Below are positions 221 through 24,109 of a stretch of DNA of 64,000 nt, one piece after another. Both the position numbers and the translations under genes were made by a program. The stretch is taken from positions 1 through 64,000 of the forward strand of contig NZ_JAPIVP010000015.1 of NCBI RefSeq assembly GCF_026239555.1, given 5' to 3'. The notes below the pieces were generated by a model, which was not told the DNA's origin, ran no database searches, and saw only the letters and a program-made list of their open reading frames with translations. Within the stretch, counting starts at the first letter, position 1. Each line of letters begins with the position of its first letter. This DNA is from Pedobacter sp. PF22-3. GTDB lineage: Bacteria > Bacteroidota > Bacteroidia > Sphingobacteriales > Sphingobacteriaceae.

Positions 221-3200
221 TTAGTTTTTATAATGATAATTAGTTTGCTTTAAGATATTGCCGTTCTGGTCTTTAATGATTTTCAGGCGCTGAAAGGCAT
301 CGTATTCGTAGGTAGTGGTCATGCCTTTGGCATCGGTACTACTTGTCATGCCGACTAATGGGTCAAATTCGAAAGTAGTCATTTGAGCATTTTTTGGCTG
401 AAAACGAATATTGTCCAGCTGATAACCCTCATTAATAGCAATGATATAGGCAGATGTATCCACCAAAATATTATCTATAACCACAAAAGACCAAAGTCCA
501 GTATTTTCTTTTTTCCAGTAACTTAAAACGTAAGTACCATTTGACAAACCGGATATGCTCTTTGAATATCCTCCGATTTTACTATACTTCCCGGATTTGC
601 TATCTCCAACAGTACTTAATCCAGGACCGTTATATTCTTCAAAGTTTTCGTAAAAAATATCAGTCGCCTTAACATTATTACCTTGTGCAAGAGGAACAGA
701 TAAGCTATTACCCCATAAAAAACTTGTAACGGAGCCTTTATCTGCTGCTTGTTGCGTAAGTCGGTTTTTGTAATCATAAGTCATACGGAACCGGCTAGTA
801 TAGCTTGAGTTTTTCAAGAAAAGGCCGTTTGAAACTGTTGAGAAATCAAAAGAGTTAAGTGGTGTGACCGTTTCAGAAACTAAAATTTGTTTTAAAGTAG
901 GTTGATCAGGGTTAAATATATTGATTGTACCTCCAAAGTATTTCTTTATTAAATTTGTACCTGGTGTAACCAGCTCTGTAAATGATTCTAAAGGGAGAAT
1001 AATATGTTTTTGTTGCAATAGTTTTATACCACTTGAAATAGAATCAAGTCCAGATGCATTATTTAGGTCAGGATAATCCTGAGGATACTTATAATAGGTA
1101 TTTAGCGTATCACCCCTAGAATTCCCAACAGATTTTTTAATCAGCTGAAAGTGTCCATTCGTTTTATCATACATATAGTTCTCATAAGTAATTTGCGCCT
1201 GAGTACCTGATATATCATACTCGGTGTGCTCTTTTCTTACAACAACATTACGATAAACGGGAATAGCGAACTGGTGTGCATAAATTTTGAATTCCTGACC
1301 ATTATCATATCCCGGTGAAGTGTATTGACTAAGTCCTTGATTGAAGAGCATTTGCCATATTCTTCGGGGGTTTTCCCTGTCATAATAATAATAATCTTTT
1401 ACTACAGGCATAAGATTACCCGCAGAAAGTTTATAATGTTTTTCTTCGATTAAATCTCCCCGTCCTCCAGGAATGGACGGGACACTGGCCATTACTGGAT
1501 TTATAATCCAAGTATTGCTTAACTGGTTGCTGAAATAAAGGATAGTATTAATGTTAAAACTGCTCCCTGCATTATAATTGAATTCTGACAGCCCGTTCAG
1601 ATTACCACTAGTGCTTTCTGAAATTTTCACTGTAGAATACCCAAAACACGGCGCATCCCGACCATCGCTGAATGGATAAATTGACTGACCATAGCGATAG
1701 CTAAAAATATTTAAAGCATCCTGTTGTGGAGACTGGTTAAAATAGTCCGATCCCTGTTGTGAAACATATATTGGCTTATCATCCTCTCTTCCATCAATAT
1801 AAGTGAATTTTTTGACGTTAGTCGTTTCTGCAAGCGGGTCATAATTAGTAATCTTGCTGACCCGCAAACCACCTGAATAGATAGTTTTATCTACATAAGT
1901 GCTAGTACTACTTGTTTTCTCAACATATACCTGGAGCCGGACTTCACAGTTATTAAAAAAAGCCTGTGAATAGGGTTCTAGATATACCCTGTAATTACTG
2001 CCTCCCTTTATCACCACAGAAGAATCTTGAGCAGATGCGTAACTCGAAGAAGGAATTGGGATTCTTTTTAGAAACATTCCATTTTCATACAAAACAACAT
2101 TAAAAAAATAATCTGAAGGATAACTACCATGCCTATCAACCATGCAAAAAATCTTGAGCCGCTTATTGTTCCAGGTATTTGCTGCAACCAGATTACCGTT
2201 TGCATCCATAAAACCTGAGACCGACAGTGTACTCGCTCCTGAAGCTTTGTAACCATTGCTTACCGTATCCCTATAAGTCGTTACAAGTTCTTTTCTGATG
2301 AACTGATTGGTTTCATATTCAAAGGTTGATTTACCCCCGGTAGGGTATTGAACAGATGTTAATATATTAGCCTGTGCATTGATTGGACTTGCTTCCCTAT
2401 CTGCACCCGGAAAAGATTGCCAGGCTCCATTTGAAAAAACACTACCACCCGGTATAAACTGACCGTTAAATGCTCCATTAAAATATCCCCAATGATCAAC
2501 AGAATACGACAACTTCGCAGGAAGGTTGATGTTTTCATTGTAAGAGTAAACAGTTCTCTTATTTATGTTCGCCTCTAAGGAATCTAATTCGGTCACGCTA
2601 TTCAACTTAAGCCTTTTTGTATGGTTATCATTTGTATATTGGCTAAGCTGTACATTAGATCCAGATACGCCACCAAATCCGCTGGATGTGAAATAGTCAT
2701 CATTGTTCAAAAGAACTTTTTTGATCAACGCTCCCTTATTGTTTCTAATCTCAATAGCTTTCAAACGGCGGGCGTTTTGAAGATCTTTCCGTTGTTCGTC
2801 ATAAATAAACATAACAAATCCATCAGAAAAATTTATCTTATTGATATTAAGTTGTTGGTAGATTGAGTAGCTAGCTGTTGTAATGACGCCACGGGACTGC
2901 GATGTATGTGGGGAAACATTACCCACTAACTGAGTTTCACCAATAACGGGTAATGGATGCGTATAACTTTGTGTTGAATAGAGGTAATCAAAATTAATTT
3001 CGCCATTTACCGGTGATACAATTTTAGTAAGATACCAAGTATTTAAATTATGTGAAACGCGGTTTTCCACATAATAAGGATCGGTTGAATTGGTAGAGTT
3101 TAACTGTTTTTGGGTAAAAAAATAGACAATCCCCTTTTCATCTGTGATTTTCCAGTCTGGGTAATATCCATTTGGAATGATTTCAATCTTTAAAGAACCA

Positions 3201-3880
3201 TCACCCAATAAAACCGGCTTAAAATTATTGTCAAAAACAAACTTATAACTACGCTCGCCAATATTGATCATATAAAGATCAGACGCAAAATCGGGAGCTT
3301 TCCCATCATAGCCCACTTGAAAATTATAGAAATATTCTTTTCCAACACCATTGTGTGGAAAAGACAACCCACTATAAACAACACCAGATACGCCATTGGC
3401 TGTAAATTGATTAAAGTTATTTACCCATAAATAATAGTTATTTTGATAGCTGATAAAAGGATTTTTTGATTGCAGGATTATGTCAGGATCATCTGGCATG
3501 TCAGGATAATTATTGGCAAACCCGCCTTCGAAATCGGGAGCGCCACGAACAGTGCTGACAATTGAGCCTCCTGCACTGAGCGCCCATCCAAGTCCAACTT
3601 CACTAGCCTCTTCTTTAACTTTTACCCCCCCTGCATGATACATCAAGGAGATTGGTAAGTTAAGATCACCTTCCTTAATCGTATAAACGGGATAAGTTAT
3701 ACTCGGTATTCCCGAAAAGTTACTGACCGGGATGAGTCCAAATTTACCCAATGCAGATACATCTGGAGGAGGAGGGGTAAGCATTGGTGGTTTTACAGTA
3801 GTTTGTCCGCTAATCATTTGACAATAAAGCATGGACAGAAAAAGGATAAAAATCCTTAGGATAGAGAATTGACGTTTCAT
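221..3880 (-). CDS. RHS-like secreted protein with SpvB/TcdB-type N-terminus, no toxin tip
   Basis: This 1219-residue protein has a signal peptide (residues 1-26) and then the segment LPISLMYHAGGVKVKEEASE followed by VGLGWALSAGGSIV. That pattern is typical of the N-terminus of Bacteroidota RHS/YD-repeat surface proteins. The middle is long and rich in aromatic and polar residues. The C-terminus has YD-like repeats (TTTYEYDAFQRLKIIKDQNG). The protein stops directly after a YD repeat, so there is no RHS core motif and no variable toxin domain. The next gene starts 6 bp downstream and may carry the remaining RHS part. Upstream, 178 bp separate it from the gspF-like gene. The RHS family assignment is firm; the function (surface display or delivery) is inference. 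Confidence 0.85.
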   Translation of the reverse strand: MKRQFSILRIFILFLSMLYCQMISGQTTVKPPMLTPPPPDVSALGKFGLIPVSNFSGIPSITYPVYTIKEGDLNLPISLMYHAGGVKVKEEASEVGLGWALSAGGSIVSTVRGAPDFEGGFANNYPDMPDDPDIILQSKNPFISYQNNYYLWVNNFNQFTANGVSGVVYSGLSFPHNGVGKEYFYNFQVGYDGKAPDFASDLYMINIGERSYKFVFDNNFKPVLLGDGSLKIEIIPNGYYPDWKITDEKGIVYFFTQKQLNSTNSTDPYYVENRVSHNLNTWYLTKIVSPVNGEINFDYLYSTQSYTHPLPVIGETQLVGNVSPHTSQSRGVITTASYSIYQQLNINKINFSDGFVMFIYDEQRKDLQNARRLKAIEIRNNKGALIKKVLLNNDDYFTSSGFGGVSGSNVQLSQYTNDNHTKRLKLNSVTELDSLEANINKRTVYSYNENINLPAKLSYSVDHWGYFNGAFNGQFIPGGSVFSNGAWQSFPGADREASPINAQANILTSVQYPTGGKSTFEYETNQFIRKELVTTYRDTVSNGYKASGASTLSVSGFMDANGNLVAANTWNNKRLKIFCMVDRHGSYPSDYFFNVVLYENGMFLKRIPIPSSSYASAQDSSVVIKGGSNYRVYLEPYSQAFFNNCEVRLQVYVEKTSSTSTYVDKTIYSGGLRVSKITNYDPLAETTNVKKFTYIDGREDDKPIYVSQQGSDYFNQSPQQDALNIFSYRYGQSIYPFSDGRDAPCFGYSTVKISESTSGNLNGLSEFNYNAGSSFNINTILYFSNQLSNTWIINPVMASVPSIPGGRGDLIEEKHYKLSAGNLMPVVKDYYYYDRENPRRIWQMLFNQGLSQYTSPGYDNGQEFKIYAHQFAIPVYRNVVVRKEHTEYDISGTQAQITYENYMYDKTNGHFQLIKKSVGNSRGDTLNTYYKYPQDYPDLNNASGLDSISSGIKLLQQKHIILPLESFTELVTPGTNLIKKYFGGTINIFNPDQPTLKQILVSETVTPLNSFDFSTVSNGLFLKNSSYTSRFRMTYDYKNRLTQQAADKGSVTSFLWGNSLSVPLAQGNNVKATDIFYENFEEYNGPGLSTVGDSKSGKYSKIGGYSKSISGLSNGTYVLSYWKKENTGLWSFVVIDNILVDTSAYIIAINEGYQLDNIRFQPKNAQMTTFEFDPLVGMTSSTDAKGMTTTYEYDAFQRLKIIKDQNGNILKQTNYHYKN

Positions 3881-4058: not shown

Positions 4059-5198
4059 TTAAAAACTGCTACTCATCTGGAACATCGGCAGGTACATGGC
4101 AATCAGGATTACGCCTACCACTATCCCCAAAAAGATGATAATTAAGGGTTCCAGTAAACCGCTGATGGCGTTGGTTTTGTATTCTACTTCTTCGGTATAC
4201 TGTTCTGAAAGTTGCTCGAAGAAATATTCCAAGCGGTTTACTTCTTCCGCGATTTTGATCATCTGGATAAATTTTGCGGGATAAAAATCGTATTTGGAAA
4301 GTGCTGCCGAAAGACTGCTTCCTAAAAGAATATCCTTTTCTGCCAATTTGAGTGAATTTTCCACAGGATAAAAGGTAATCATCTGCCGCACCAGTTCCAG
4401 TGCCTGTAGCAAAGGGGTGTTGGTTTCGGTGAGTAAGCGCATGGTGTTGGCAAAACGGGCCAGGTAAACCTTACGCGTAATTTCGCCAACAATGGGAATG
4501 CGCAGCAAAAGCAAGGAAGCCCCTTTTTTAAACCAGAATTTATTTCGGTTAATAAAATATAGCACAACCAGTGCTACCACCGCAAACAGCATCAGGTAAA
4601 TATATCGGTCAAACCAATCAGAAAAACTGACAATAAGGGAAGTGATGTAGGGTAATTTGCCACCAAAACGTTTAAATACATCGGCAAACATGGGTACCAC
4701 AAACTTGATCATAAAAAATACCGCGCCGAAAGAGGTAAAAAGAACCAATAAAGGATAGGTAATGGCACCGATAATTTTGCGCTGCTGGCTGATTTTCGAT
4801 TTGTAGTATTTTGCCAGTTCGCCCAATACTTCGCCAAGTTTACCTGTTTCCTCCCCTATTTTTACGCTATAATATTCGTAAGGACTAAATTTCGATTCGG
4901 CCTGCATGGTTTCGGACAGCGATTTACCTTCTATTACCTGTTTCTGTACGGAAGAAAAAAGTTCCACATCATTTTTTTGCGTATAAGAACCCGCGGTAAG
5001 TTCGAGCGCAGAGCGAATATCAATTCCCGATCGGATGAGCGTGCCCAGTTCATTGTAAAATCCTTCCTTTTTCTTATCGGATAATTTACCCTTGCCAAAA
5101 GAAATGTCTTTGCTTAAAAAATCAGCAAGACTTGCTGTTTCCTTTTCGTTGGATGCCCCTTTTTTTTTCTGGATTTTTGAAATATCTATTGATGGCAT
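4059..5198 (-). CDS. gspF: GspF/PilC-type inner-membrane platform protein
   Basis: The 379-residue protein has the two repeated GspF domains. The first runs from FYNELGTLIRSGIDIRSALE to the membrane segment near residues 146-170; the second starts near LLRIPIVGEITRKVYLARFA and ends in a C-terminal membrane segment (LIIIFLGIVVGVILIAMYLP). The motif KIGEETGKLGEVLGELA is the usual GspF/PilC signature. Family members form the inner-membrane platform that the assembly ATPase uses to build a pilus or pseudopilus. The start lies 1 bp after the stop of the prepilin gene at 5200-5676, so they share an operon. No ATPase (GspE/PilB) or secretin gene is visible in this window. Confidence 0.92.
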   Translation of the reverse strand: MPSIDISKIQKKKGASNEKETASLADFLSKDISFGKGKLSDKKKEGFYNELGTLIRSGIDIRSALELTAGSYTQKNDVELFSSVQKQVIEGKSLSETMQAESKFSPYEYYSVKIGEETGKLGEVLGELAKYYKSKISQQRKIIGAITYPLLVLFTSFGAVFFMIKFVVPMFADVFKRFGGKLPYITSLIVSFSDWFDRYIYLMLFAVVALVVLYFINRNKFWFKKGASLLLLRIPIVGEITRKVYLARFANTMRLLTETNTPLLQALELVRQMITFYPVENSLKLAEKDILLGSSLSAALSKYDFYPAKFIQMIKIAEEVNRLEYFFEQLSEQYTEEVEYKTNAISGLLEPLIIIFLGIVVGVILIAMYLPMFQMSSSF

Positions 5199-5199: not shown

Positions 5200-5676
5200 T
5201 TATTTTAGTAAATCGTGAGCACTATAAAATTTCCCTATGGTGATGGGGATCGTCTGTTGTTTTTCCATTTTGAGCATAAAACTGATGTGATCAACAGTAT
5301 CCATTTCCTGCACTTCTCTTTCTTCAAACCGAAAACGGGTGTCAACCGGTGTGACATGAAAGCTATCCGTACGCAAATTTTCTACCTTTCGGAGGATGGC
5401 CGTGTCTGCAAATTGGTAAGTGATGCTCAAACTATCTCCGGTAATATGGATACCATCAACTGTTCTGATCAGGTAGCACCCTTTAGCCACATCTTTTTCC
5501 ATGGTTCTGCGTAAAGTAAGTACTTCTTCTGCAGTAGCATTTTTTTTCTGAAAAGCATGAAAATAGTCTCCAATCATCTGGTATGCCGTATAACAGATGC
5601 TCATGCATATTGCAGCCAGCAGCATGGCAATCGCTATTTCCATCAACGTATAAGCCTCAATTTTCTTTGCTTTCAT
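5200..5676 (-). CDS. Prepilin-like (minor pseudopilin) protein
   Basis: The 158-residue protein starts with a short basic leader and a prepilin-type segment, MKAKKIEAYTLMEIAIAMLL. The E at mature position 5 is present, and a hydrophobic helix follows (to about residue 32). The residue before the expected cleavage site is Ala rather than the usual Gly. The C-terminal part is a soluble domain with no recognisable motif. Its start overlaps the upstream prepilin gene by 20 bp and the gspF-like gene follows immediately, which fits a GspI/GspJ-like minor pseudopilin role. The exact minor pseudopilin type cannot be assigned. Confidence 0.8.
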   Translation of the reverse strand: MKAKKIEAYTLMEIAIAMLLAAICMSICYTAYQMIGDYFHAFQKKNATAEEVLTLRRTMEKDVAKGCYLIRTVDGIHITGDSLSITYQFADTAILRKVENLRTDSFHVTPVDTRFRFEEREVQEMDTVDHISFMLKMEKQQTIPITIGKFYSAHDLLK

Positions 5677-6022
5677 CCTTCATTTTTAAAAGAAACCTGA
5701 TATAACCTACAGGAGCGCCATGGTCATTTGCCTTGATCTCTACCATTTGCATGGCGGAAGTGGCCTGTTTAACCACATTGATTTTATAATCGACGCTATC
5801 GATCCAGACACTTTCCTGTTCAATACTTCTACTCTCAATAACCTGTAACCTAAGGGTTTCCAGTTGCTGCCCAATCTGCACTTTCCGCATGGATATGCCA
5901 CTGCTCAGCACATTGGAAAAAAGCCCCATGGCCATAGAAAACACCACCATGATAATCACCATGGCAATGAGTACCTCTATTAATGTGGAGGCTTCCAGCT
6001 GCTTGTTTTTCAATTTTGCCAT
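5657..6022 (-). CDS. Prepilin-like (minor pseudopilin) protein
   Basis: The 121-residue protein has a type IV prepilin N-terminus: a basic leader, then LEASTLIEVLIAMVIIMVVF with Glu at position 5 of the mature form and a hydrophobic helix. Ala sits at -1 of the predicted cleavage site, as in the neighbouring prepilin. The soluble part is short (about 85 residues). It overlaps the upstream GspK/PilX-like gene by 13 bp and the downstream prepilin gene by 20 bp, so translation is probably coupled. GspI/GspH-like minor pseudopilin is the likely class. A prepilin peptidase gene is not present in this window. Confidence 0.82.
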   Translation of the reverse strand: MAKLKNKQLEASTLIEVLIAMVIIMVVFSMAMGLFSNVLSSGISMRKVQIGQQLETLRLQVIESRSIEQESVWIDSVDYKINVVKQATSAMQMVEIKANDHGAPVGYIRFLLKMKDESKEN

Positions 6023-7248
6023 CTCAATATATTTTGCTTTTCAGCATTACCTGTAAATATGGCCGAACTGAGGTATACCCTGCTCCTGGCTTTTCTGTTT
6101 AGTATGACATCAATCAGGAAATTCTCATAGAGTGTTGCAGGGGTTTTCATAATAAAGCGGTTACAGGAAACCTTTCCTGCCACCTTTACCCCCTTATCAA
6201 GTTTTATTAGTCCTGTTGCGTAAACTTCGCCCTGCACCATGGTTTGCTCACCCAAGCCCACCAGGGTTTGCAAAGCCGATCTTTTGGGTTCGTAACTAAA
6301 AATAATGCCCTCAAAGTGGTTGTTTTTTCCGAGCGTGATCTTTGCCTGATCAACCATTTTTTCTTTACTCACCAGCCCTAATACCGATGGATAGTTCAGG
6401 CTTACGTCGTTTCCGATCACAATCGAGTCTCTGGCGAAAAGCTGGCAATTGCCTTTAAAACCATCGGCCACTACAATGCTTCTGGCATAAATGATGGTAT
6501 TATCCAGCTTTGCTGCAGCCGAAATCTTCACCGTTGTATCTGAATATAAAATAACCTGACCAGCAAGCTGGGTAGTGATCTGCCTCAAGCCCGATACATT
6601 AAACTTTTTGGCTTTGGCGAAAAAAGAAACCTGCTCATCAGCTCCATTTAAAGTGGGTAGTTTTGTTAAATCAAAATCAAGCTCCGTTTCTATTTCCTTA
6701 ATCCACTTGCTTTCCAGTCCGCCTAAGGTCCGTTTACTATCGGCAATTTTACCATAAACCAGTTGATCGCCCGAATAAGGCCGGCTATCTACATACGATT
6801 TACGCATCCCTGCCTTGGGCACTTCTACATTGCCGGTAATGCGGGTATCGCCACTAACAGACAAAGGTCTGTCTTCATCACTCAGGTACAAGGCCACCGC
6901 ATCGTTGGTGGTTTCCTGCCCCATCAAAAAACTTCGTTTCAGGGTATCAGCCAGCACGAAACTTTTAACGGTAGCGAGGGAAAAAATGCCCCAATGTTTT
7001 TGCTCAATCCATACACTATCGGTCTGGTCGCCAAAAAGATCCAATCCGATGTTATTTTCTTCGGAATTTGCATTTTGGGCCAATACGTACGAGATACCGG
7101 AATCCATATTCCTGCTGAGCCTGGCCATCCGTATCTCTTTCAAGTAACTTCCGCGATAATGCGCGGCCAGCATGATCAGTGAAGCGCAGATCAAAGCAAT
7201 GATGAAAGCTACGATGATAGAGAAATATAAAGCGCCGGCTTTAAGCAT
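6010..7248 (-). CDS. GspK/PilX-like minor pseudopilin with beta-rich body
   Basis: The 412-residue protein starts MLKAGALYFSIIVAFIIALI, a very short leader and a hydrophobic helix as in GspK/PilX-type pilins, which often lack Glu at position 5. The rest is beta-rich. It contains ITGNVEVPKAGMRKSYVDSR and several short repeating beta segments that could form a beta-helix (for example FEGIIFSYEP and MVQGEVYATGLIKLDKGVKV). It is the first of four pilus-type genes, read in the order K-like, two prepilins, gspF. It lies 138 bp downstream of the last fibre gene. The assignment rests on N-terminus, size and gene order. Confidence 0.72.
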   Translation of the reverse strand: MLKAGALYFSIIVAFIIALICASLIMLAAHYRGSYLKEIRMARLSRNMDSGISYVLAQNANSEENNIGLDLFGDQTDSVWIEQKHWGIFSLATVKSFVLADTLKRSFLMGQETTNDAVALYLSDEDRPLSVSGDTRITGNVEVPKAGMRKSYVDSRPYSGDQLVYGKIADSKRTLGGLESKWIKEIETELDFDLTKLPTLNGADEQVSFFAKAKKFNVSGLRQITTQLAGQVILYSDTTVKISAAAKLDNTIIYARSIVVADGFKGNCQLFARDSIVIGNDVSLNYPSVLGLVSKEKMVDQAKITLGKNNHFEGIIFSYEPKRSALQTLVGLGEQTMVQGEVYATGLIKLDKGVKVAGKVSCNRFIMKTPATLYENFLIDVILNRKARSRVYLSSAIFTGNAEKQNILRWQN

Positions 7249-7386: not shown

Positions 7387-8034
7387 CTATTTAACCTTTT
7401 TCTTCAGTTCATTGATTTCTTTCTGCTGGCTGATCATGTGAAGCGTTAGTTCTTCTATTTTTTGGAGCAACAGTTTATTCATTTCGCCAAGTTCAATCCC
7501 GTTTTTCGCCACTTCTTGTGCGCTTGGAATACCCGGGAGGTGTTTATTTGCTTTAATATAAAGGTCTAAATCTGATAGAGAAGAAATTTTATAATCCTTT
7601 CGGAACACGAAATCAGGCCAGCCTGTTGCTTCTACCTTAACTTCTTTGGCCCGTATATTGCCATTAACAGCCAGGCGTTCTGTACCGAAGGTTTCTGTGC
7701 CTATGCCCACTTTACCATCTGCACCCACAACCATGTGAACATAATATTTACTATCCACCCAATTTGTCGTACCGATTAAAAAGCGGTCATCCCCACTTCC
7801 ATAATCATCACCAATATTTACCCTCAAATCGCTCAAATTATTCGCCCTATTAAGCCGGTAAATGGAGAGTTCGTCAGAATTTGAAGTTACTCCGTTGAAT
7901 GTAAGCCTATTCCCGGCACCTGTTACTGCCCCGGCATCTGCGCCAATAGATAAATCCCCGTTGATAGTCTGACTTTGTGCTTTCACCATAATTACAGCAA
8001 TCATAAAAGCGAGTGTTAAATAGATTTTTTTCAT
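7387..8034 (-). CDS. Tail-fibre-like secreted array protein, member 15 (shortest, type A-like)
   Basis: The 215-residue protein has a signal peptide (residues 1-19, ending VKAQ) and a short variable part. One 'KVGIGTETFGTERLAVNGNI' unit links to the family's C-terminal module. The module (about 125-200) diverges from the others: ATGWPDFVFRKDYKISSLSD replaces the usual NWPDYVF...EGY...VGTL form, but KHLPGIPSAQEVAKNGIELG and EMNKLLLQKIEELTLHMI are conserved. A short coiled coil ends the protein. It is the last of fifteen tandem copies in transcription order and the shortest. Export is predicted; its function is unknown. Confidence 0.85.
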   Translation of the reverse strand: MKKIYLTLAFMIAVIMVKAQSQTINGDLSIGADAGAVTGAGNRLTFNGVTSNSDELSIYRLNRANNLSDLRVNIGDDYGSGDDRFLIGTTNWVDSKYYVHMVVGADGKVGIGTETFGTERLAVNGNIRAKEVKVEATGWPDFVFRKDYKISSLSDLDLYIKANKHLPGIPSAQEVAKNGIELGEMNKLLLQKIEELTLHMISQQKEINELKKKVK

Positions 8035-8055
8035 AAAATATAGTTTATTTGCTTA

Positions 8056-9800: not shown

Positions 9801-9801
9801 T

Positions 9802-10755: not shown

Positions 10756-10756
10756 T

Positions 10757-16477: not shown

Positions 16478-17190
16478 AATTTTTGAGCTTTAGATTTTAG
16501 CGCTTCTAATTCTTTTTTGATAATTATCATTTCTCTATCTTTTTGAATTAGATAGAGCGTAATTTCCTCTACTTTTTTAAGCAACAGTTTGTTCATTTCA
16601 CCTAATGCTATCCCATTTTCTTGTACTTCTTTAGCTGAAGGAATCTCTGGCAAATGTTTATTCGCTTTGATATAACTTTCCAACTCTGCCAACGTTCCAA
16701 CCTTATAATCCTCAGCAAAAACATAATCAGGCCAGTTGGTGGCTTCTACCTTGATTTCGCGGGCACGGATATTGCCATTTACGGAGAGTTTTTCTGAAGG
16801 AGTAAATGTGCCAAGGCCTAAATTCCCATTTGCACCGAGGTTCATTAACACATATTCGGTATCGGTTCCGGCATCTCTTTTGAGCCATTGGAAAAGTGGA
16901 AATGCAGCTCTGCTATCAATCCTAAAGGCAGCGCCTAAAAACGAACTTTTTTTATTTGCTTCTCTAAAGTTCAAACTCATATTAAACAGCGGGACAGTAC
17001 CGCCAACTTCAGTATTTAATCCTAACGGTATTTCAGCATTCGAAATCAGGATGTTTCCTCTAACATCCAATTTTTCTTGTGGTGTAATTGTTCCTATTCC
17101 AACGTTGGCACCGTTGGTAGGAAATACACTTTGTGCTGAAGCCGCCCCAAAGCTTGCACTAAGGAACATAAGAGCGAGAATTTTCTTCAT
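16474..17190 (-). CDS. Tail-fibre-like secreted array protein, member 5 (type A)
   Basis: The 238-residue protein is one of the shorter members. It has a signal peptide (MKKILALMFLSASFGAASAQ) nearly identical to that of member 9. Two or three GIG units follow (ANVGIGTITPQEKLDVRGNI, GNLGLGTFTPSEKLSVNGNI), then the type A module (KVEATNWPDYVFAEDYKVGT, KHLPEIPSAKEVQENGIALG) and a basic coiled-coil tail. Its 5' end and the 3' end of member 4 form the junction block duplicated at 13533-13685. Confidence 0.86.
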   Translation of the reverse strand: MKKILALMFLSASFGAASAQSVFPTNGANVGIGTITPQEKLDVRGNILISNAEIPLGLNTEVGGTVPLFNMSLNFREANKKSSFLGAAFRIDSRAAFPLFQWLKRDAGTDTEYVLMNLGANGNLGLGTFTPSEKLSVNGNIRAREIKVEATNWPDYVFAEDYKVGTLAELESYIKANKHLPEIPSAKEVQENGIALGEMNKLLLKKVEEITLYLIQKDREMIIIKKELEALKSKAQKL

Positions 17191-17193: not shown

Positions 17194-18285
17194 TTAATGT
17201 TTAATATTTTTCTTGATGATTAACAATTCATTGATTACACGATCTAGCTGTTGCTGTTGTTTTATATTTATGACTTTTTCATCACGAAGCTGTCTATCCT
17301 TTTCGATGAGATGCAAGGTTAATTCTTCTATTTTTTGCTGTTGTAATTTTAACATTTCACTCACCGTAATTCCATTCGCTTCTACTTCTTGAGCACTCGG
17401 CATTCCAGGCAAATGTTTATGCGTTTTGATATAACTTTCCAATTCTTCCAACTTTCCAACCTTATAACCCTCAGCAAAAACGTAATCAGGCCAATTGGTG
17501 GCTTCTACTTTTATTTCGCGGGCGCGAATATTGCCGTTTACGGAAAGCTTTTCCCGAGGGCTTAATGTCCCCATTCCAATATTTCCAACGCCATCAATCA
17601 CAATATCATCACCATAAAACCATTGTTGGCCATTTCCATACTTATCAAACATCCTTCGGGTGCCCAGAATCATTTTACCGGTAGCATTACCATTACCTGT
17701 ATTTCCCGCTACAGTCATTATTCTGGCCTGTCCCCAAGGGTTACTTCCGTCTGTATTACCTGGTATCACAAATTCAAGTGAGGAACCTTTATCTTCAAGT
17801 CGCCCTCCCGTTTGGGCTTCAACAATAAGACTACTATTAGTATTATAATTATTACCATCGTTAAGGTTTGCTCCATTACCTAAAGCACGAACTTTTGAAG
17901 GATTATTCAATTGTGATTGCACCCAATCTTGTGTTGCAACTGTATGCCAGTTACCCCAAGTACTTTGATATTGCTGACGATAGTATAAGCCATCAGTAAA
18001 ATAACCGAGTCCGATTTGCCCTATCCAGTTATTGCCATGATCATGCTGCATTTCAATAATATGATACCAATCAGAGGATGTAGGGGCATTTATTTGGGTT
18101 TGGGCGTTAAATATATACATCCCCGGCATGCCCGTCCCTCCCCAGTTTTGATTAATATTTAAATCACCTGTGTATTGATTGGCATTAGTTTTAACACCAT
18201 TAGCAGTTGTTAGTGGCTCTTGCGCAATTACCGCCTCAGACAGTCCTAGTGCGGTAATCAATAACAATACTTTCTTATTTAGCAT
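17194..18285 (-). CDS. Tail-fibre-like secreted array protein, member 4, with pyocin-knob-like N-domain (type A)
   Basis: The 363-residue protein has a signal peptide (1-21, AVIAQ). Residues about 30-120 resemble the knob domain of phage and pyocin tail fibres (NAPTSSDWYHIIEMQHDHGN ... YQSTWGNWHTVATQDWVQSQ). This is the clearest link between the array and tail-fibre receptor-binding parts. After a second variable part come a GNIGMGTLSPREKLSVNGNI unit, the type A module (NWPDYVFAEGYKVGKLEELE) and a tail (QQQQLDRVINELLIIKKNIK) shared with member 8. The start overlaps member 3 by 11 bp. Confidence 0.86.
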   Translation of the reverse strand: MLNKKVLLLITALGLSEAVIAQEPLTTANGVKTNANQYTGDLNINQNWGGTGMPGMYIFNAQTQINAPTSSDWYHIIEMQHDHGNNWIGQIGLGYFTDGLYYRQQYQSTWGNWHTVATQDWVQSQLNNPSKVRALGNGANLNDGNNYNTNSSLIVEAQTGGRLEDKGSSLEFVIPGNTDGSNPWGQARIMTVAGNTGNGNATGKMILGTRRMFDKYGNGQQWFYGDDIVIDGVGNIGMGTLSPREKLSVNGNIRAREIKVEATNWPDYVFAEGYKVGKLEELESYIKTHKHLPGMPSAQEVEANGITVSEMLKLQQQKIEELTLHLIEKDRQLRDEKVINIKQQQQLDRVINELLIIKKNIKH

Positions 18286-19318
18286 TTTTTAGTTTTTTTT
18301 GAGTTAACCTGGTTTTGGTGCTTTTCATTTCTAGCTTTAGCAAGCGTTCTTCATAGCTTTTATTTATTGTTCTCTGTTCAGTAAGTTGTTTATCTTTTTC
18401 GATCAGATGCAGCGTCAACTCCTCTATCTTTTTCTGTTGTAATTTGAGCATTTCACTCACCGCAATTCCATTCACTTCTACTTCTTGAGCACTTGGCATT
18501 CCAGGCAAATGTTTATGCGTTTTGATATAACTTTCCAATTCTTCCAACTTTCCAATCTTATAACCCTCAGCAAAAACATAATCGGGCCAGTTGGTGGCTT
18601 CTACCTTAATTTCTTTGGCCCTGATGTTACCATTTACTGCAAGTTTATCAGTGGGTGAATTCACGCCTATGCCCATATTTCCATTACCTAAAATTCTTAA
18701 GAGTTGTCTTTCCTGACTAGCATTATTATAACTATAAAAAGCAAACCCACCTTGAGATCCGGCGCCTTCGTTAGCAACAAAATCAGTCTCTCCATCTCCA
18801 GCAGTCCTATTCCAGCCCATCAGCATCTTACCTGTACCTGCCAGGCTTTGATACGCAACAGGGTTTCCGTACATATCAAGGTTTGCATACTGTCCTCCAA
18901 ACTTTACCGTACCCATCACATCCAATGTCGCACTAGGATCTGATGTACCGATGCCTACATACCCATTATATTGCCAGGTCATAGCATGCTGATCTGGCAC
19001 ATTGTTCTGATTGGCTGCTCCGTTTACAAAAAGGTCTAACCTCGAGCCCCACACATTCGGGCCACCATGAGCAATCCTAAATTCTGCCGATTCAGGATAA
19101 CTGTAATTCGGTGTCCCAGGGCGCGAAAACTTCAACAGCGATTGTGCAGACGAGACTACACCAGCTGGTTTGCTATCTGGATTAACTAATATATGCAATG
19201 GCGCACTAGGATTAAGCGTACCAATTCCTGCCGGGCCATTATTTGGAAAGGTATTCTGTGCATGAGTCAGGCTTCCTCCACACATTATGGAGCAGAGCAT
19301 TAAAAATTTAAAATTCAT
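18275..19318 (-). CDS. Tail-fibre-like secreted array protein, member 3 (type A)
   Basis: The 347-residue protein has a signal peptide (1-20, THAQ) and repeated GIG units (AGIGTLNPSAPLHI, GYVGIGTSDPSATLDV, GNMGIGVNSPTDKLAVNGNI) separated by variable parts. The type A module (NWPDYVFAEGYKIGKLEELE) is almost identical to that of member 4. The tail is long, basic and coiled-coil-like. The start lies 2 bp after the out-of-frame stop of the frameshifted member 2 (TAA at 19321-19323), which shows where member 2 originally ended. Confidence 0.87.
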   Translation of the reverse strand: MNFKFLMLCSIMCGGSLTHAQNTFPNNGPAGIGTLNPSAPLHILVNPDSKPAGVVSSAQSLLKFSRPGTPNYSYPESAEFRIAHGGPNVWGSRLDLFVNGAANQNNVPDQHAMTWQYNGYVGIGTSDPSATLDVMGTVKFGGQYANLDMYGNPVAYQSLAGTGKMLMGWNRTAGDGETDFVANEGAGSQGGFAFYSYNNASQERQLLRILGNGNMGIGVNSPTDKLAVNGNIRAKEIKVEATNWPDYVFAEGYKIGKLEELESYIKTHKHLPGMPSAQEVEVNGIAVSEMLKLQQKKIEELTLHLIEKDKQLTEQRTINKSYEERLLKLEMKSTKTRLTQKKLKNAK

Positions 19319-19320: not shown

Positions 19321-19395
19321 TTAATGTTTTTGTTGATCAGTTTTTGGATTATTGTCTTCCAGAATTCCCATCCTTTTAATCAGTTCATCAAGTTT
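19321..19395 (-). pseudogene. Out-of-frame coiled-coil tail of array member 2
   Basis: This stretch encodes about 23 residues beginning LDELIKRMGILEDNN, in the frame next to that of member 2, and ends with TAA 2 bp before the ATG of member 3. It aligns with the tail of member 11 (INALINRVDILENKKKK). It is the detached end of member 2. Confidence 0.75.
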
Positions 19396-20171
19396 TTATC
19401 TTTTTCGATGAGATGTAAGGTTAGTTCTTCTATTTTTTGTTGCTGCAGTTTCAGCATTTCACTTACCGCAATCCCATTTACTTCTATATCTTTGGCAGAT
19501 GGCATTCCAGGCAAGTGCTTGTTTGCTTTGATATAATCTTCCAACGCTTTCAACGGCCCAACCTGATAACCATCTTCAAAAACATAATCGGGCCAGTTAG
19601 TAGCTTCTACCTTGATTTCTTTAGCGCGGATGTTACCATTTATGGCCAACTTATAATTGTTGTCAGGAATGGCCATGTTAATCGCCAAATTCCCCTCATG
19701 ATCACTTGTAATTACTGACTTGATGTTTAACGGAAGTAGCTCTGTTAACCCTGAAGGAAGAGATTCAGTGACGGTATTTACCACTAGTTTGGTCGCGTCT
19801 CCTCCAAACATACAAGATTTAACGGCTATGGCAGTCCAGTGGTTAGTAATTAAATAGAAATCTATATTACCATTCGTATTATGATAAGCATGCAGAGAAT
19901 AGCGGTCTGAGATACCACCCGTCGTAAATTTTGTTATTCTTAACTCATTTCTGTTGGCAATATAATAAGTAGTTTCGCCTGTTTGATAAGATTCCCAGGC
20001 TCCTCCCAAAACCTCTACCTTTAGTTTCTGCAAATTGGAGCCATCACTTGGGGGCAGGCTCCCTAGATATACATGCAATTGTTGCCCAGCATTTCCAATT
20101 ATTTCTTTGCCATATTGTGCTTTTAGAAGAAATGGAAATAAGTATAACAAGATTAGGATTATTTTTTTCAT
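19380..20171 (-). CDS. Tail-fibre-like secreted array protein, member 2 (type A), C-terminus shortened by a frameshift
   Basis: The 263-residue frame has a signal peptide (1-18, LLKAQ), a variable N-domain of about 150 residues, an atypical GIG-like unit (GNLAINMAIPDNNYKLAING) and the type A module (NWPDYVFEDGYQVGPLKALE). It stops abruptly after HLIEKDKNLMN, where its relatives continue with a coiled coil. In the next frame the sequence reads LDELIKRMGILEDNNPK and on to a TAA at 19321-19323, as expected for the missing tail. One base, most simply an A in the A5 run (minus strand) at 19393-19397, seems to have been lost. The protein may still fold, because module and coiled-coil start are intact. 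Confidence 0.82.
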   Translation of the reverse strand: MKKIILILLYLFPFLLKAQYGKEIIGNAGQQLHVYLGSLPPSDGSNLQKLKVEVLGGAWESYQTGETTYYIANRNELRITKFTTGGISDRYSLHAYHNTNGNIDFYLITNHWTAIAVKSCMFGGDATKLVVNTVTESLPSGLTELLPLNIKSVITSDHEGNLAINMAIPDNNYKLAINGNIRAKEIKVEATNWPDYVFEDGYQVGPLKALEDYIKANKHLPGMPSAKDIEVNGIAVSEMLKLQQQKIEELTLHLIEKDKNLMN

Positions 20172-20230: not shown

Positions 20231-21217
20231 TTATTTTATTTTCTTCAAGATTTCTTTAAGCATTTTATCCTGGCGGTCAAGCTTCGTTTCGAGAGTGGTG
20301 ATTTTAAGGTTTTGTTTGTTAAGCTGCTTTTCTTTTTCGATCAGATGTAAAGTGAGCTCCTCAACCTTTTGCAACAGCTTAATATTCAGTTCACCGAGGT
20401 TTACTCCATTTTCTACCATCTGCTTGGCCGTTGGGATTTCGGGAAGTTGTTTATTGGTTTTTACGAATTTTTCCAGTTCGGCTAATTCAGGAAGTTTATA
20501 ATCGGGTTCGAAAACGAAATCGGCACCTGTGGTATTTACCACTATTTCATTGGCCCGGGCTTTTCCGTTTACGTCAAGAAGATACGTACTGTTAGCTTGA
20601 CTTGTTTTACCAATGATTACATTACCATTGTCACTAATTACAAATTTCGGCCCCATCGCGGAATTATCCTGATTATAACTCCAAAACTGTAGAGAATTAC
20701 CATAATATCCAGTCATATTGTATATCGCCCAGCGATAGGCCAAATTACTGGCCGTTTTATTAGGGTTTTCGAGCCACAAAGATCCGCCTTCATTTGAGCC
20801 TACATTAGACAGAATACTGCCAGCAACAGATAATTTTTGAGTTGGGTTATCTATTCCTATACCTACATTACCAGCACCTTTTAGTGTTAAAACTGTTTTG
20901 GGACCATTTTTATAGGCTCCTAGCACGAGGTATGGATCTGCCGGATTACTTACATAATTGAAATGAAATTCATCTTCAGAACCATTTGTACCTTCTGAAA
21001 ACGCACCTTTAAATAAAATAGTTCCTAAACCGCCACTTAAACTCGGCGCAAGTCTTAACACAGGCCTTTGACCTTCAATCTGCAATACTGGTCCGCCAAA
21101 CCAAGAGGTTGGATTTAGTGTACCAATACCCACATTTCCTGAAGTTGGGAAAGTATTTTGGGCAAACAAAAAGTTACCCGTAAATAATGAGAGGCCAATT
21201 AAGATGATTTTTTTCAT
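20231..21217 (-). CDS. Tail-fibre-like secreted array protein, member 1 (type B)
   Basis: The 328-residue protein is the first fibre gene in transcription order. It has a signal peptide (1-19, FLFAQ) and GIG-type units (GNVGIGTLNPTSWF, GNVGIGIDNPTQKLSVAGSI, GNVIIGKTSQANSTYLLDVN). A divergent type B module follows (ANEIVVNTTGADFVFEPDYK, KQLPEIPTAKQMVENGVNLG), then a heptad tail. Its ATG overlaps the stop of the MORN-repeat gene by 4 bp, which ties the array to the upstream gspC-like and lipoprotein genes. Confidence 0.87.
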   Translation of the reverse strand: MKKIILIGLSLFTGNFLFAQNTFPTSGNVGIGTLNPTSWFGGPVLQIEGQRPVLRLAPSLSGGLGTILFKGAFSEGTNGSEDEFHFNYVSNPADPYLVLGAYKNGPKTVLTLKGAGNVGIGIDNPTQKLSVAGSILSNVGSNEGGSLWLENPNKTASNLAYRWAIYNMTGYYGNSLQFWSYNQDNSAMGPKFVISDNGNVIIGKTSQANSTYLLDVNGKARANEIVVNTTGADFVFEPDYKLPELAELEKFVKTNKQLPEIPTAKQMVENGVNLGELNIKLLQKVEELTLHLIEKEKQLNKQNLKITTLETKLDRQDKMLKEILKKIK

Positions 21218-21831
21218 TGTTTTGTTTTTTTATCTTTTTTAAAAATGGATTTTAACCAACGGGCAATTTTCACTGCCCTGCTGGGTTGGTAAGCGATAAC
21301 CTTACCTTTATTGTAGCGGATAACCTGGATACTATCGGCACTCACCCGCTTTTCCAGTTTCCCATTTAATAAACCATCGAGGTATTTTCCCCTTTCCAGC
21401 AGTATACCATCCTGATCGTATTTTTCAAACCTGCCGTTGGCTTTACCTGAAGAATAATTAATGATTGAATCCAGTTTTCCGTCTTCACCCCAGTTTTTCC
21501 ATCTACCTGTTTTCAGACCCATTTGGTATAATCCCTGTGTTTTAAGTCCTTTGGTATCGTAAAATTCATTATATATACCATCCAGCAGTTTACCGCTATA
21601 GCCACCTTGGGTGTATCGGATCTGGTTGCCGCTAAACCAGGCATAATTTCGGTCAGATTTCATATTACCTAACCCTGTTTCCGGTTTTTGCACATAAAAA
21701 ACAGCTTTATAATGCTCGTAATTAACGGTATGGGTATAGTGATCTACATTAAAATAGGATGTTATTCGTTGTGCACCAGCCTTAAAAAACAGCAGGCACA
21801 GCAGGAGCATGGTGATGTAAACTAATTTCAT
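21214..21831 (-). CDS. Exported MORN-repeat (YwqK-type) protein
   Basis: The 205-residue protein has a signal peptide (1-20, KAGAQ) and four to five MORN-like repeats between about residues 75 and 175 (LLDGIYNEFYDTKGLKTQGL, MGLKTGRWKNWGEDGKLDSI, KANGRFEKYDQDGILLERGK). A basic tail follows. Such YwqK-type proteins are common in Bacteroidota and are often named antitoxins without proof. It overlaps its upstream neighbour by 4 bp and the first fibre gene by 4 bp, so it belongs to the same operon. A structural or binding role at the envelope is likely; the exact role is unknown. Confidence 0.82.
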   Translation of the reverse strand: MKLVYITMLLLCLLFFKAGAQRITSYFNVDHYTHTVNYEHYKAVFYVQKPETGLGNMKSDRNYAWFSGNQIRYTQGGYSGKLLDGIYNEFYDTKGLKTQGLYQMGLKTGRWKNWGEDGKLDSIINYSSGKANGRFEKYDQDGILLERGKYLDGLLNGKLEKRVSADSIQVIRYNKGKVIAYQPSRAVKIARWLKSIFKKDKKTKQ

Positions 21832-22319
21832 TGTTTTATAGATAAAAATTTTGTTGCGTTCTGGTATTCGACTTTTATCGAATCACCAATCCTTTTTATA
21901 AATTTTAAGCCATTTGCCCGTTCACCCTCACTAAGCATGACTTCTTTCCCATTTACACTGATAATGGCGACATGTGTTTTTTCTGCACGGTTATAAATCT
22001 GCCCGCTATAAATAATTCCCGACCAATTTACCTGCGGTTTAAATGGAGCAGGTGTTGTTGGTGATATGGGTGTTGATGGTTTGTCCACAGGTTTGGGTTC
22101 GGCAGCAGTTAAGGCAAAAGGATCTGCATAGTTCATTTCCAATGTTACCTGGTCTTTTGCATGATCAATCATATTAAAATAAGGCTCTTTAATGGTCCTC
22201 GAATTAACTGGCACGTTATCTTCAGTAGCCAGCCCGGTAAAAACCCGATAAAAAATAATACCCCATACACCTGCTACACAGCAAATGAGCAAATAGGTGG
22301 TTCTTTTACTCTTCATCAT
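21828..22319 (-). CDS. GspC-like inner-membrane protein (HR-domain)
   Basis: The 163-residue protein has a short cytoplasmic start, one transmembrane helix (about 9-28, YLLICCVAGVWGIIFYRVF), a proline-rich linker (KPSTPISPTTPAPFKPQ) and a C-terminal domain of about 65 residues. That domain fits the GspC/PilP homology region: WSGIIYSGQIYNRAEKTHVA, then IISVNGKEVMLSEGERANGL, then the VEYQ...FLSI strand. In type II secretion and type IV pili this region links the inner-membrane platform to the secretin. Its presence here, with the pseudopilins and GspF 15 kb downstream in the same train, supports one machine. The family match is by eye. Confidence 0.65.
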   Translation of the reverse strand: MMKSKRTTYLLICCVAGVWGIIFYRVFTGLATEDNVPVNSRTIKEPYFNMIDHAKDQVTLEMNYADPFALTAAEPKPVDKPSTPISPTTPAPFKPQVNWSGIIYSGQIYNRAEKTHVAIISVNGKEVMLSEGERANGLKFIKRIGDSIKVEYQNATKFLSIKQ

Positions 22320-23263
22320 TACTGTATGGTAAAAGTTCTGATCTCACTATAGGCACCAGCATTTCCGGCTTTATCAAAAGCCCTCACTCTCCAGGCAACG
22401 GTTTCACCAACGTTACCGGCATCAAAAACGTGTTCGGTAGAAGTTACGATCAGTGGATAACTCTTACTATAGGGCGTCTGTTCATCACTTTGGTATACCG
22501 ATATCTCATAACGTTCTGCATCGGCAAGTCTACTCCAAGTTAGCCTTACCGGCCGGGATACGGCCTGCTTATTAGAGGGGGTATTGAGCAATACCCGTTC
22601 AGGACCTGTAACATCATAGATCAAGCTTCTTACGGTACTCCATTTCGAGTTCTCCACGCTGTTTTCTGCCCGTACACGGAACTGATAAGTTCCTTCCTTG
22701 CTTAGTGTTTGTAGAAAGCCCAGGTTATCAGTTGTAATGTTGAGTGTCATGTTATTTTCATCGAGAAAATTATTATTATCTACCTGTAAGCGATATACTT
22801 TGGCACCGAAAAGCTTAAGCCATTCGTATCTTACATCAGGTTTTGAAAAATAAAGTCCACTTGACGGAACCGTAAGCTGTACACTCTGCTCTTTAAGACT
22901 GGAAGGAAATATTTCAAGCGAACGGGTACTGTAATTACTTGCACTACTACCGTTTTCGCCCCTTACCCGCCATTCATATTTTCCCGGGTCCATGGTATAT
23001 ACAAATTTTTCGGTCTTGATCAAAGTATCCAAAACCATTTTACTTACACTGTCAAATTTTGGCGAAACGATCTGTAACCGGTAAAAGAGCGCATCGGCCA
23101 TTGGGTTCCACCAAAACGTCTGTTGATAGCTATTGGTTTCGAGTTTATTGGCAGGGGCCAGGATATCTATACTTCGATTTTCTATGGATGGCTCTATAAA
23201 TTCACTGCAGCCTGCCATTAATAGCAAAACACTTACCATTAAAAGATTTATATTTTTTTTCAT
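22319..23263 (-). CDS. Lipoprotein with repeated Fn3-like domains
   Basis: The 314-residue protein has a lipobox (LLMAGC, Cys about 19) and three Fn3-like beta-sandwich repeats of about 90 residues. Each repeat begins with a run such as ILAPANKLETNSYQQTFWWN, LTVPSSGLYFSKPDVRYEWL or LNTPSNKQAVSRPVRLTWSR and ends with a Y-x-W/F-R-V-R-A strand (YEWRVRGENG, YQFRVRAENS, VAWRVRAFDK). It shares one base with the gspC-like gene downstream. As an outer-membrane lipoprotein it could be a scaffold or pilotin-like factor for the machine; that is inference. Confidence 0.82.
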   Translation of the reverse strand: MKKNINLLMVSVLLLMAGCSEFIEPSIENRSIDILAPANKLETNSYQQTFWWNPMADALFYRLQIVSPKFDSVSKMVLDTLIKTEKFVYTMDPGKYEWRVRGENGSSASNYSTRSLEIFPSSLKEQSVQLTVPSSGLYFSKPDVRYEWLKLFGAKVYRLQVDNNNFLDENNMTLNITTDNLGFLQTLSKEGTYQFRVRAENSVENSKWSTVRSLIYDVTGPERVLLNTPSNKQAVSRPVRLTWSRLADAERYEISVYQSDEQTPYSKSYPLIVTSTEHVFDAGNVGETVAWRVRAFDKAGNAGAYSEIRTFTIQ

Positions 23264-23266: not shown

Positions 23267-24109
23267 TTAAAACTGTATATTAATTTCGTACATGGACTGT
23301 ACTTTTATCAGGATTCCTCCAAAGGTAATTAAAGCCTCTGCCAATCTGGAGTAAGAAAAGATTTGAACAATAGCCTTTTTTTTAATCATTTTTTGCGCCT
23401 TTTTTTCAAAAAAAGCCTTTCTGTATGTACTACCAATCAGGAGTTTATTCGTTTCATTGCCATTAAGCATGACGGTATTTCCCTCTATAGCAGTAATTTT
23501 TTCATCACTGATGATATAAGATTTATGTATCCGGCTAAAACAGGCACTGGGCAAACCATCTTCCATTTCTTTCATCGTGTTATGGCAAGAGAAACGTTGG
23601 TTATTTTCCATGTGAAGTACTACATAGTTCTGCATGGCCTGTATGTAAATCAATTGGTCGCATTTGATCAGGAATTCTTTTAGTCCTTTAGCATCTGCCT
23701 TAATAAAAAAAGAATCTATCACCTGCTGCTTTTTTGTGCCTTGTACACCGTGGGCGAGCTGTGTAAGATGATCGAATTTATTGATGGTTTTTGCAAAACG
23801 GTTAAAGGTAACTGGCCTGATCAGGAAATCAAATGCCGAATGCTCAAAAGCTTCGAAAGCCATTTCCGTATTTTCGGATACCAAAACGATGGAAGAAAAC
23901 TGTTTGATTCGTTCCAGCCAGCCATTGCTACCACTTAAAAATACAACATCAACAAAAACAATATCGGGTCTGATAGAATATACGGCATCAAAACTTTCTG
24001 GCCGCTGTACCGAATATCCCTTTAATTGAGTAAGCGGATAGTCGTTTATGTACATACATAAAGATTCTACGGTATGCAGTTCACCGATTACATAACAGCT
24101 GATCATCAT
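23267..24109 (-). CDS. LytTR-family response regulator
   Basis: The 280-residue protein has a receiver-like domain (about 1-115) with a possible phosphoacceptor Asp54 in IRPDIVFVDVVF. The paired acidic residues usually found after the first strand are missing (CYVIGELH). A LytTR DNA-binding domain spans about 130-240 (LIYIQAMQNYVVLHMENNQR, SRIHKSYIISDEKITAIEGN). A tail of about 38 residues (from KKKAIVQIF to the end at INIQF) goes past the usual LytTR end. It is the first gene of the train that leads into the fibre array and is the natural candidate for its regulator. No partner kinase lies in the window. Confidence 0.85.
   Translation of the reverse strand: MMISCYVIGELHTVESLCMYINDYPLTQLKGYSVQRPESFDAVYSIRPDIVFVDVVFLSGSNGWLERIKQFSSIVLVSENTEMAFEAFEHSAFDFLIRPVTFNRFAKTINKFDHLTQLAHGVQGTKKQQVIDSFFIKADAKGLKEFLIKCDQLIYIQAMQNYVVLHMENNQRFSCHNTMKEMEDGLPSACFSRIHKSYIISDEKITAIEGNTVMLNGNETNKLLIGSTYRKAFFEKKAQKMIKKKAIVQIFSYSRLAEALITFGGILIKVQSMYEINIQF

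What the first reader, a model, noticed from the sequence alone, without database searches (positions are those of the whole stretch)
221..24109. Fibre array inserted into a pseudopilus/secretion gene set
The same-strand train has GspC-like, GspK-like, two prepilins and GspF on both sides of the fibre array, led by a LytTR regulator and followed by RHS-like proteins. Only part of a type II secretion/type IV pilus machine is seen (no ATPase, secretin or prepilin peptidase in the window). The simplest reading is a regulated machine that exports or assembles the fibres. I know of no described system with this order.
Basis: partly seen in the sequence, partly recalled or inferred. Interest (0 to 1): 0.85.

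Follow-up and report, generated by a model that had tools for sequence, protein, structure and literature searches.

The report
Mosaic fibre genes inside secretion operon
A Pedobacter-like bacterium carries fifteen genes for mix-and-match fibre proteins wedged inside the genes of a little-understood protein-export machine, which makes these fibres (and neighbouring RHS proteins) good candidates for what that machine exports.

Summary
The train at 221-24109 (- strand) runs LytTR regulator, Fn3-type lipoprotein, GspC-like, MORN protein, 15 fibre genes, GspK-like, two prepilins, GspF, RHS-like. Together they form the Bacteroidota "T2SS", which Denise 2019 suggested may be a separate, T4aP-derived secretion system.

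In 80 related loci the machine is conserved, while fibre and RHS genes sit at variable module boundaries. GspK normally abuts the MORN gene; in 9 of 67 loci 1-15 fibre genes, all on the same strand, lie between them. In 17 relatives 110 of 150 fibre genes lie within 50 kb of gspF (2.9 expected); RHS genes are enriched there too.

The fibres resemble Bdellovibrio MAT fibres in sequence and fold, with reversed polarity: variable N-terminal heads, conserved C-terminal tails exchanged between array members.

Best explanation: the machine exports Sec-delivered fibres and RHS proteins. Export is untested. Against it: 29 relatives have fibre genes without this machine, some beside T9SS genes, others beside RHS genes. 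Verdict: new variant of a known kind.

The parts
23267..24109 (-). LytTR-family response regulator; receiver domain looks degenerate (Asp kept in FVDV, acidic pocket not recognisable, Lys replaced by Arg)
   Evidence: PF04397 E 2e-15; Response_reg only E 0.023; sequence read
22319..23263 (-). putative lipoprotein with Fn3/Y_Y_Y-type repeats, conserved member of the cluster
   Evidence: in 66 of 80 related loci
21828..22319 (-). GspC/PilP-like inner-membrane protein: one TM helix, linker, HR-type beta domain
   Evidence: AlphaFold pLDDT 83; best Foldseek hits GspC-HR, PulC-HR, PilP, GspB
21214..21831 (-). secreted MORN-repeat protein, conserved member of the cluster
   Evidence: PF07661 below cut-off; in 67 of 80 related loci
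20231..21217 (-). fibre gene 1 (tail type B)
   Evidence: tail profile, alignment
19380..20171 (-). fibre gene 2
18275..19318 (-). fibre gene 3
17194..18285 (-). fibre gene 4
16474..17190 (-). fibre gene 5; structure predicted
15581..16477 (-). fibre gene 6
14616..15551 (-). fibre gene 7 (tail type B)
13618..14619 (-). fibre gene 8 (tail type B)
12505..13614 (-). fibre gene 9
11682..12524 (-). fibre gene 10
10757..11692 (-). fibre gene 11 (tail type B)
9802..10755 (-). fibre gene 12
8877..9821 (-). fibre gene 13
8056..8880 (-). fibre gene 14
7387..8034 (-). fibre gene 15
6010..7248 (-). GspK-like large minor pseudopilin: prepilin-type N-terminus without Glu5, weak bactofilin match
   Evidence: in 77 of 80 loci
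5657..6022 (-). minor prepilin (GspI/ComGE-like)
   Evidence: PF07963 E 0.002, ComGE E 0.003; Glu5 present
5200..5676 (-). minor prepilin (GspJ/ComGF-like)
   Evidence: PF07963 E 0.014; Glu5 present
4059..5198 (-). GspF/PilC-like inner-membrane platform protein, the only one in the genome
   Evidence: PF00482 E 2e-45; single gene
221..3880 (-). RHS/YD-repeat protein with signal peptide
   Evidence: PF05593 E 2e-5
1..214 (-). start of a second RHS-type gene, cut by the contig end
   Evidence: translation; a relative has a second RHS gene here (L140)

Best explanation
The locus encodes a T4aP-derived, T2SS-like protein exporter together with its cargo. Shown: a full gene set for the machine exists in the genome, in two modules (LytTR-lipoprotein-C-MORN-[array]-K-I-J-F in the window; G-peptidase-ATPase-secretin-L-M on contig C27); the 15 array genes are packed in the operon; each has a Sec-type N-terminus, a variable beta-rich head related to MAT and phage fibres, and a conserved ~90-residue tail ending in a coiled coil. 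Inferred: fibres cross the inner membrane by Sec, trimerise in the periplasm through the tail, are passed by the GspC-like protein to the secretin and pushed out by a pseudopilus with the K/I/J tip, and stay at the surface or are released as adhesins. The tail would be the common handle and the heads the variable binding ends; array members exchange tails and heads, so the repertoire turns over quickly. The RHS proteins beside the machine are inferred to use the same exit.
For: Machine completeness. One GspF, one full ATPase, one secretin, no PilT-type second ATPase. Co-location in 17 relatives: 110 of 150 fibre genes within 50 kb of gspF, 2.9 expected; 14 of 40 fibre clusters at gspF, 0.39 expected. 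RHS clusters: 28 of 71 within 50 kb of gspF, 1.4 expected. All fibre clusters of five or more genes in that set are near gspF. Intra-operon fibres are always co-oriented (32 of 32 between MORN and K, 59 of 59 upstream of K). In 251 family genomes, 46 of 53 with 3 or more fibre genes have GspF, 24 of 198 others do. MAT relation. Head/tail mosaic. No lipobox or T9SS-type C-terminus was seen in the fibres.
Against: No export experiment exists. 29 of 82 fibre-bearing family genomes lack both GspF and a secretin. Class-wide, fibre tails are in 142 of 296 genomes but secretins in 52, with only a modest association (38 of 52 against 104 of 244), and in the listed rows I saw no close adjacency outside the family. 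Tails from the machine-less genome G219 are closest to tails of machine-linked arrays, so the tail is not a machine-specific signal. Many loci have the machine without fibres within 10 kb (37 of 80). The Fisher and uniform-placement tests ignore phylogeny.
Confidence: 0.5

Rival explanations
1. Hot-spot reading: the fibres and RHS proteins form their own module, exported by another route (T9SS or unknown), and the machine's gene boundaries are merely tolerated landing and expansion sites for such variable genes.
For: Away from gspF 17 of 29 fibre clusters have an RHS gene within 5 kb (0.49 expected), so fibre-RHS pairing does not need the machine. Machine-less genomes G219, G072, G150 have arrays beside PorP/SprF and a T9SS type B protein. 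Fibres also lie on either strand upstream or downstream of the modules.
Against: Intra-operon fibres are always co-oriented and tightly packed; large arrays in the sampled genomes are only near gspF; co-occurrence across the family is strong.
Confidence: 0.25
2. Pilus-decoration reading: the T4aP-like machine builds a short surface filament or tip complex, and the fibres attach to it or to the outer-membrane complex as exchangeable adhesins rather than being exported through the secretin.
For: Major pilin is closer to PilA than to GspG (PilA_Myxo 52.9 bits, GspG 34.3 bits; PDB best hit PilA). The fibre array lies directly before the K-I-J tip genes. Secretin-like complexes sit at tips of outer-membrane tubes in Flavobacterium johnsoniae (PMC8455137).
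Against: No retraction ATPase. Fibres have Sec-type, not prepilin-type, N-termini. In C. hutchinsonii the homologous system affects outer-membrane protein presentation and adhesion to cellulose (PMC5553014); in the passages I read no pilus was reported.
Confidence: 0.15

Closest known systems
Bacteroidota T2SS-like system of Cytophaga hutchinsonii / Pedobacter heparinus (Wang 2017, PMC5553014; Denise 2019, PMC6668835)
   Same: Same component set (D, E, F, G, peptidase, two minor pilins, C/L/M-like) with an order unlike the proteobacterial one; Denise 2019 places it with T4aP and suggests a novel secretion system.
   Different: The passages I read name no fibre or RHS genes as part of it. Here 15 fibre genes interrupt the module between the MORN and GspK genes, and a LytTR regulator leads it.
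Mosaic adhesive trimer (MAT) fibres of Bdellovibrio bacteriovorus (Caulton 2024, PMC10769870)
   Same: Profile match E 9e-14 to 8ond and 5e-12 to 8oml; top 15 Foldseek hits are MAT fibres; many paralogues with one conserved and one exchanged end.
   Different: Polarity is reversed: in MATs the N-terminal domain is conserved and the C-terminal tip varies; here heads are N-terminal and variable, tails C-terminal and conserved. Much shorter (215-369 aa against ~1000). Clustered in a secretion operon.
Phage tail fibres (PHROGs tail-fibre families)
   Same: Short matches of the GNVGIGT..P..KL.V.G collar to tail-fibre families.
   Different: No phage genes seen in the locus; no Peptidase_S74 match in Pfam scans.
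PorP/SprF plus type B CTD protein pairs of the T9SS
   Same: Homologous fibre arrays in machine-less relatives sit beside such pairs.
   Different: No PorP/SprF match lies within about 10 kb of gspF in the 80 machine-bearing loci, and only two loci have a type-B-protein-like match.

Membership tests
Type II secretion system (proteobacterial Gsp sense) | Secretin, assembly ATPase, GspF platform, prepilin peptidase and pseudopilins encoded in the genome | tested here: met
   the peptidase is a weak PF01478 match (E 0.66) with both Asp motifs by eye
Type II secretion system (proteobacterial Gsp sense) | Components pass curated T2SS equivalog cut-offs | tested here: not met
   GspE 484.8 bits (cut-off 630), GspD 118.5 (351), GspG 34.3 (89), GspF 244 (424), GspC 12.5 (102)
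Type II secretion system (proteobacterial Gsp sense) | GspC with HR domain | tested here: met
   model matches GspC-HR with TM 0.69 by target length, but PilP also matches
Type II secretion system (proteobacterial Gsp sense) | GspK-like tip pseudopilin lacking Glu5 | tested here: inconclusive
   N-terminus without Glu5, but no sequence match to GspK or any PDB entry
Type II secretion system (proteobacterial Gsp sense) | Exports folded periplasmic proteins | not testable with these tools
   needs a deletion and secretome experiment
Type IVa pilus | Retraction ATPase PilT | tested here: not met
   only one full-length PF00437 protein in the genome
Type IVa pilus | Components pass curated T4aP equivalog cut-offs | tested here: not met
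   PilB 485.1 bits (cut-off 676), PilQ 123.9 (284), PilA_Myxo 52.9 (400)
MAT fibre superfamily | Trimeric beta-helix fibre with capping-loop repeats | tested here: inconclusive
   sequence and Foldseek matches, but monomer model only, low TM-scores, trimer not modelled
MAT fibre superfamily | Conserved ~130-aa N-terminal domain after the signal peptide | tested here: not met
   N-terminal parts of the window fibres are the variable ones (median identity 0.17, shuffled 0.11; tails 0.61)
MAT fibre superfamily | Surface display and prey or glycan binding | not testable with these tools
   needs localisation and binding experiments

The most novel reading that the evidence does not exclude
A T4aP-derived secretion machine, evolved independently of the classical T2SS, that exports both a combinatorial set of trimeric recognition fibres and RHS-encased effectors, so that fibres choose the target cell and RHS proteins act on it: a contact-type antagonism system without a phage-like injection apparatus.
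Probability: 0.18. Interest if true: 0.87.

Novelty: new variant of a known kind. Interest (0 to 1): 0.62.

Why it matters
The Bacteroidota T2SS-like system has been suggested to be a separate, pilus-derived protein secretion system, but its direct substrates are unknown. This locus gives concrete candidates (mosaic fibres and RHS proteins), a clear test, and a second case of MAT-like recombining fibre repertoires, here outside predatory bacteria; for the Bdellovibrio fibres the surface element that holds them is also unknown.

Tried and rejected
Promoter and terminator scans were at chance or uninformative; no Bacteroidota -7 motif TANNTTTG was found on the - strand just upstream of the LytTR gene. 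No tRNA or Rfam family in the window. PDB profile searches of GspK-like and GspL-like proteins found nothing useful; the GspC profile found nothing by sequence and needed the fold. Pfam scans of the heads gave no named binding domain. I tested whether tails of machine-less arrays form a separate class: in G219 they do not, those of G072 and G150 resemble each other, so a machine-specific tail signal was rejected. A phage or prophage origin of the array was rejected: no phage genes around it. Joining C7 to C27 by sequence overlap: an exact shared stretch of at least 55 bases lies near the end of C27 (from base ~15735), in RHS sequence; contig ends share repeats, so this is suggestive only and the order remains unproven. 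Literature searches for fibres or RHS linked to this system found nothing.

Full report
WHAT IS THERE. The window is the first 64 kb of contig C7 of a 5.6 Mb genome whose closest named relatives are Pedobacter species (GspF 91-94% identical to Pedobacter sp. Bi126, AK013 and P. kyungheensis). On the - strand, from 24109 down to 221, lie 24 genes: a LytTR regulator, a lipoprotein with Fn3/Y_Y_Y-type repeats, a GspC-like protein, a MORN-repeat protein, 15 fibre genes, a GspK-like protein, two prepilins, GspF and an RHS protein. The median intergenic distance is -1 bp; the two largest gaps are 138 bp (array to GspK) and 178 bp (GspF to RHS).

THE REST OF THE MACHINE. The genome has one GspF, one full-length T2SSE-family ATPase and one secretin. 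ATPase and secretin are on contig C27, 15.8 kb, in the order: major pilin (5512-5952), A24-like peptidase (5952-6479), ATPase (6436-7893), secretin (7894-9840), GspL/PilN-like (9844-11034), GspM-like (11036-11581), then an RHS gene; a 16th fibre gene (4186-5166, -) sits before the pilin. Family matches: ATPase E 2e-126, secretin E 1e-35, pilin N_methyl E 6e-5. The peptidase scores only E 0.66 for PF01478, but has both Asp motifs (QD, GLGD) by eye. The GspC-like protein had almost no sequence match (E 0.08), but its predicted structure (pLDDT 83) has one TM helix and a beta domain whose best Foldseek hits are GspC-HR (3oss_C, E 3e-3, TM 0.69 by target length), PulC-HR, PilP, LspC and GspB.

WHAT KIND OF MACHINE. 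By curated cut-offs it is neither a classical T2SS nor a T4aP: the ATPase scores 484.8 bits for GspE and 485.1 for PilB, the secretin 118.5 for GspD and 123.9 for PilQ, the pilin 34.3 for GspG and 52.9 for Myxococcus PilA, all below cut-off. No PilT-type second ATPase is present. This agrees with Denise et al. 2019 (PMC6668835), who place the so-called T2SS of Bacteroidetes with T4aP and raise the possibility of a novel secretion system derived from T4aP. The same gene set was found in Cytophaga hutchinsonii and P. heparinus (PMC5553014), where C. hutchinsonii mutants of D, F and G had reduced adhesion to cellulose and altered outer-membrane proteins; the affected proteins named there were judged unlikely to be direct substrates.

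GENE ORDER IN RELATIVES. One scan with a GspF alignment gave 80 named loci, annotated with queries from this genome. Two modules recur: lipoprotein-C-MORN-K-I-J-F and G-peptidase-E-D-L-M. They are adjacent in many species, in either order or orientation (e.g. L109, L077, L114). Within 10 kb of GspF, 43 of 80 loci have fibre genes and 51 have RHS genes; 34 have both (Fisher p 0.003). Fibre genes occur at several boundaries: MORN|K, after F, before the lipoprotein, after M. Where MORN and K are both in view (67 loci), 58 have them abutting (gaps at most 60 bp); 9 have 1-15 fibre genes there, all on the operon strand. In seven more the array fills the upstream flank as far as the locus reaches. 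In one relative (G171, L149) the order L-M-lipoprotein-C-MORN-8 fibres-K-I-J-F-RHS is continuous, and in another (L063) RHS genes lie between F and G, which makes it plausible that C7 and C27 belong to one locus. That is inferred, not shown. The LytTR gene is found in only 10 of 80 loci.

CO-OCCURRENCE AND CO-LOCATION. Of 251 family genomes 70 have GspF and 82 have the fibre tail. With three or more fibre genes, 46 of 53 have GspF against 24 of 198 of the rest (p 4e-25, not corrected for phylogeny). In 17 relatives with few contigs, 110 of 150 listed fibre genes lie within 50 kb of gspF (2.9 expected under uniform placement), 14 of 40 fibre clusters within 20 kb (0.39 expected), and 28 of 71 RHS clusters within 50 kb (1.4 expected). 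In the window's genome 16 of 20 fibre genes are in the two machine loci.

EVIDENCE THAT CUTS THE OTHER WAY. 29 family genomes with fibre genes have neither GspF nor a secretin. In three of the same genus (G219, G072, G150) arrays sit beside a PorP/SprF protein (TIGR03519, E 5e-77) and a T9SS type B protein (TIGR04131); others sit beside RHS genes (L158, L162, L163). Away from gspF 17 of 29 fibre clusters have an RHS gene within 5 kb (0.49 expected). Class-wide, fibre tails are in 142 of 296 genomes, secretins in 52, and the association is modest (odds ratio 3.7, p 1e-4). What is particular to the Sphingobacteriaceae is that the large arrays are found at the machine.

WHAT THE FIBRES ARE. Each has a Sec-type N-terminus, a variable head, the collar GNVGIGTxxPxEKLxVNG, a conserved ~90-residue tail (IRAREIKVEATNWPDYVF...HLPxIPSAKE...LLLKKIEELTLHLIE) and a C-terminal helix that reads as a coiled coil. 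The profile finds Bdellovibrio MAT fibres in the PDB (8ond E 9e-14, 8oml E 5e-12) and the predicted fold does too (top 15 Foldseek hits; TM-scores are low, the model being a monomer of pLDDT 75). Caulton et al. 2024 (PMC10769870) describe MATs as surface adhesins, mosaic, with a conserved N-terminal end and variable C-terminal tips, and the surface element that holds them awaits identification. Here the polarity is reversed.

A RECOMBINING REPERTOIRE. Among the 15 window fibres the heads have median identity 0.17 (shuffled 0.11) and tails 0.61. Nine have a head orthologue (identity above 0.6) in five close relatives; in seven of these the tail is closer to another tail of the same array than to the best head orthologue's tail. 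The clearest: gene 7 has head 0.82 but tail 0.52 to its orthologue, and tail 0.95 to neighbour gene 8; gene 4 has head 0.91, tail 0.71, and tail 0.91 to neighbour gene 3. Six have no head orthologue there. This is what tail conversion within the array, or head exchange onto resident tails, would give.

HOW IT MOST LIKELY WORKS. Inferred: Sec export, trimerisation by the tail, hand-over to the GspC-like/secretin gate, and pseudopilus-driven exit; RHS proteins leave the same way. Export of folded, oligomeric cargo from the periplasm is established for T2SS in general (own knowledge). I put this at 0.5. The hot-spot reading (0.25) and the pilus-decoration reading (0.15) remain open. Nothing here shows export, transcription or function.

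VERDICT. A real and reproducible gene arrangement, not an artefact; a known but poorly understood machine with a new kind of resident cargo candidate. Interest 0.62.

Noticed in passing
window 25401-29408 (-): Upstream of the LytTR gene lies a run of small genes, among them a DUF6794 lipoprotein-like protein (27638-28366) with an 88% identical shorter copy on contig C1 near fibre and RHS-tip genes (L137:10846-11286); possibly immunity-type genes of RHS toxins.
   Followed up: partly
L143, L145, L146 (genomes G219, G072, G150): Fibre arrays in genomes without the T2SS-like machine sit next to a PorP/SprF protein and, on the opposite strand, a T9SS type B sorting-domain protein of 672-674 aa.
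   Followed up: partly
L006:1-3858 (contig C27): RHS core and C-terminal tip fragments with small genes between, as in displaced RHS tip/immunity cassettes.
   Followed up: no
L137 and L138 (contigs C1 and C59 of the window's genome): The four fibre genes outside the machine loci lie beside RHS fragments or RHS-like genes.
   Followed up: partly
window 29784-30695 (+): HEPN-domain protein just beyond the cluster.
   Followed up: no
window 23267-24109 (-): The LytTR regulator's receiver domain looks degenerate, so control by phosphorylation is doubtful.
   Followed up: partly
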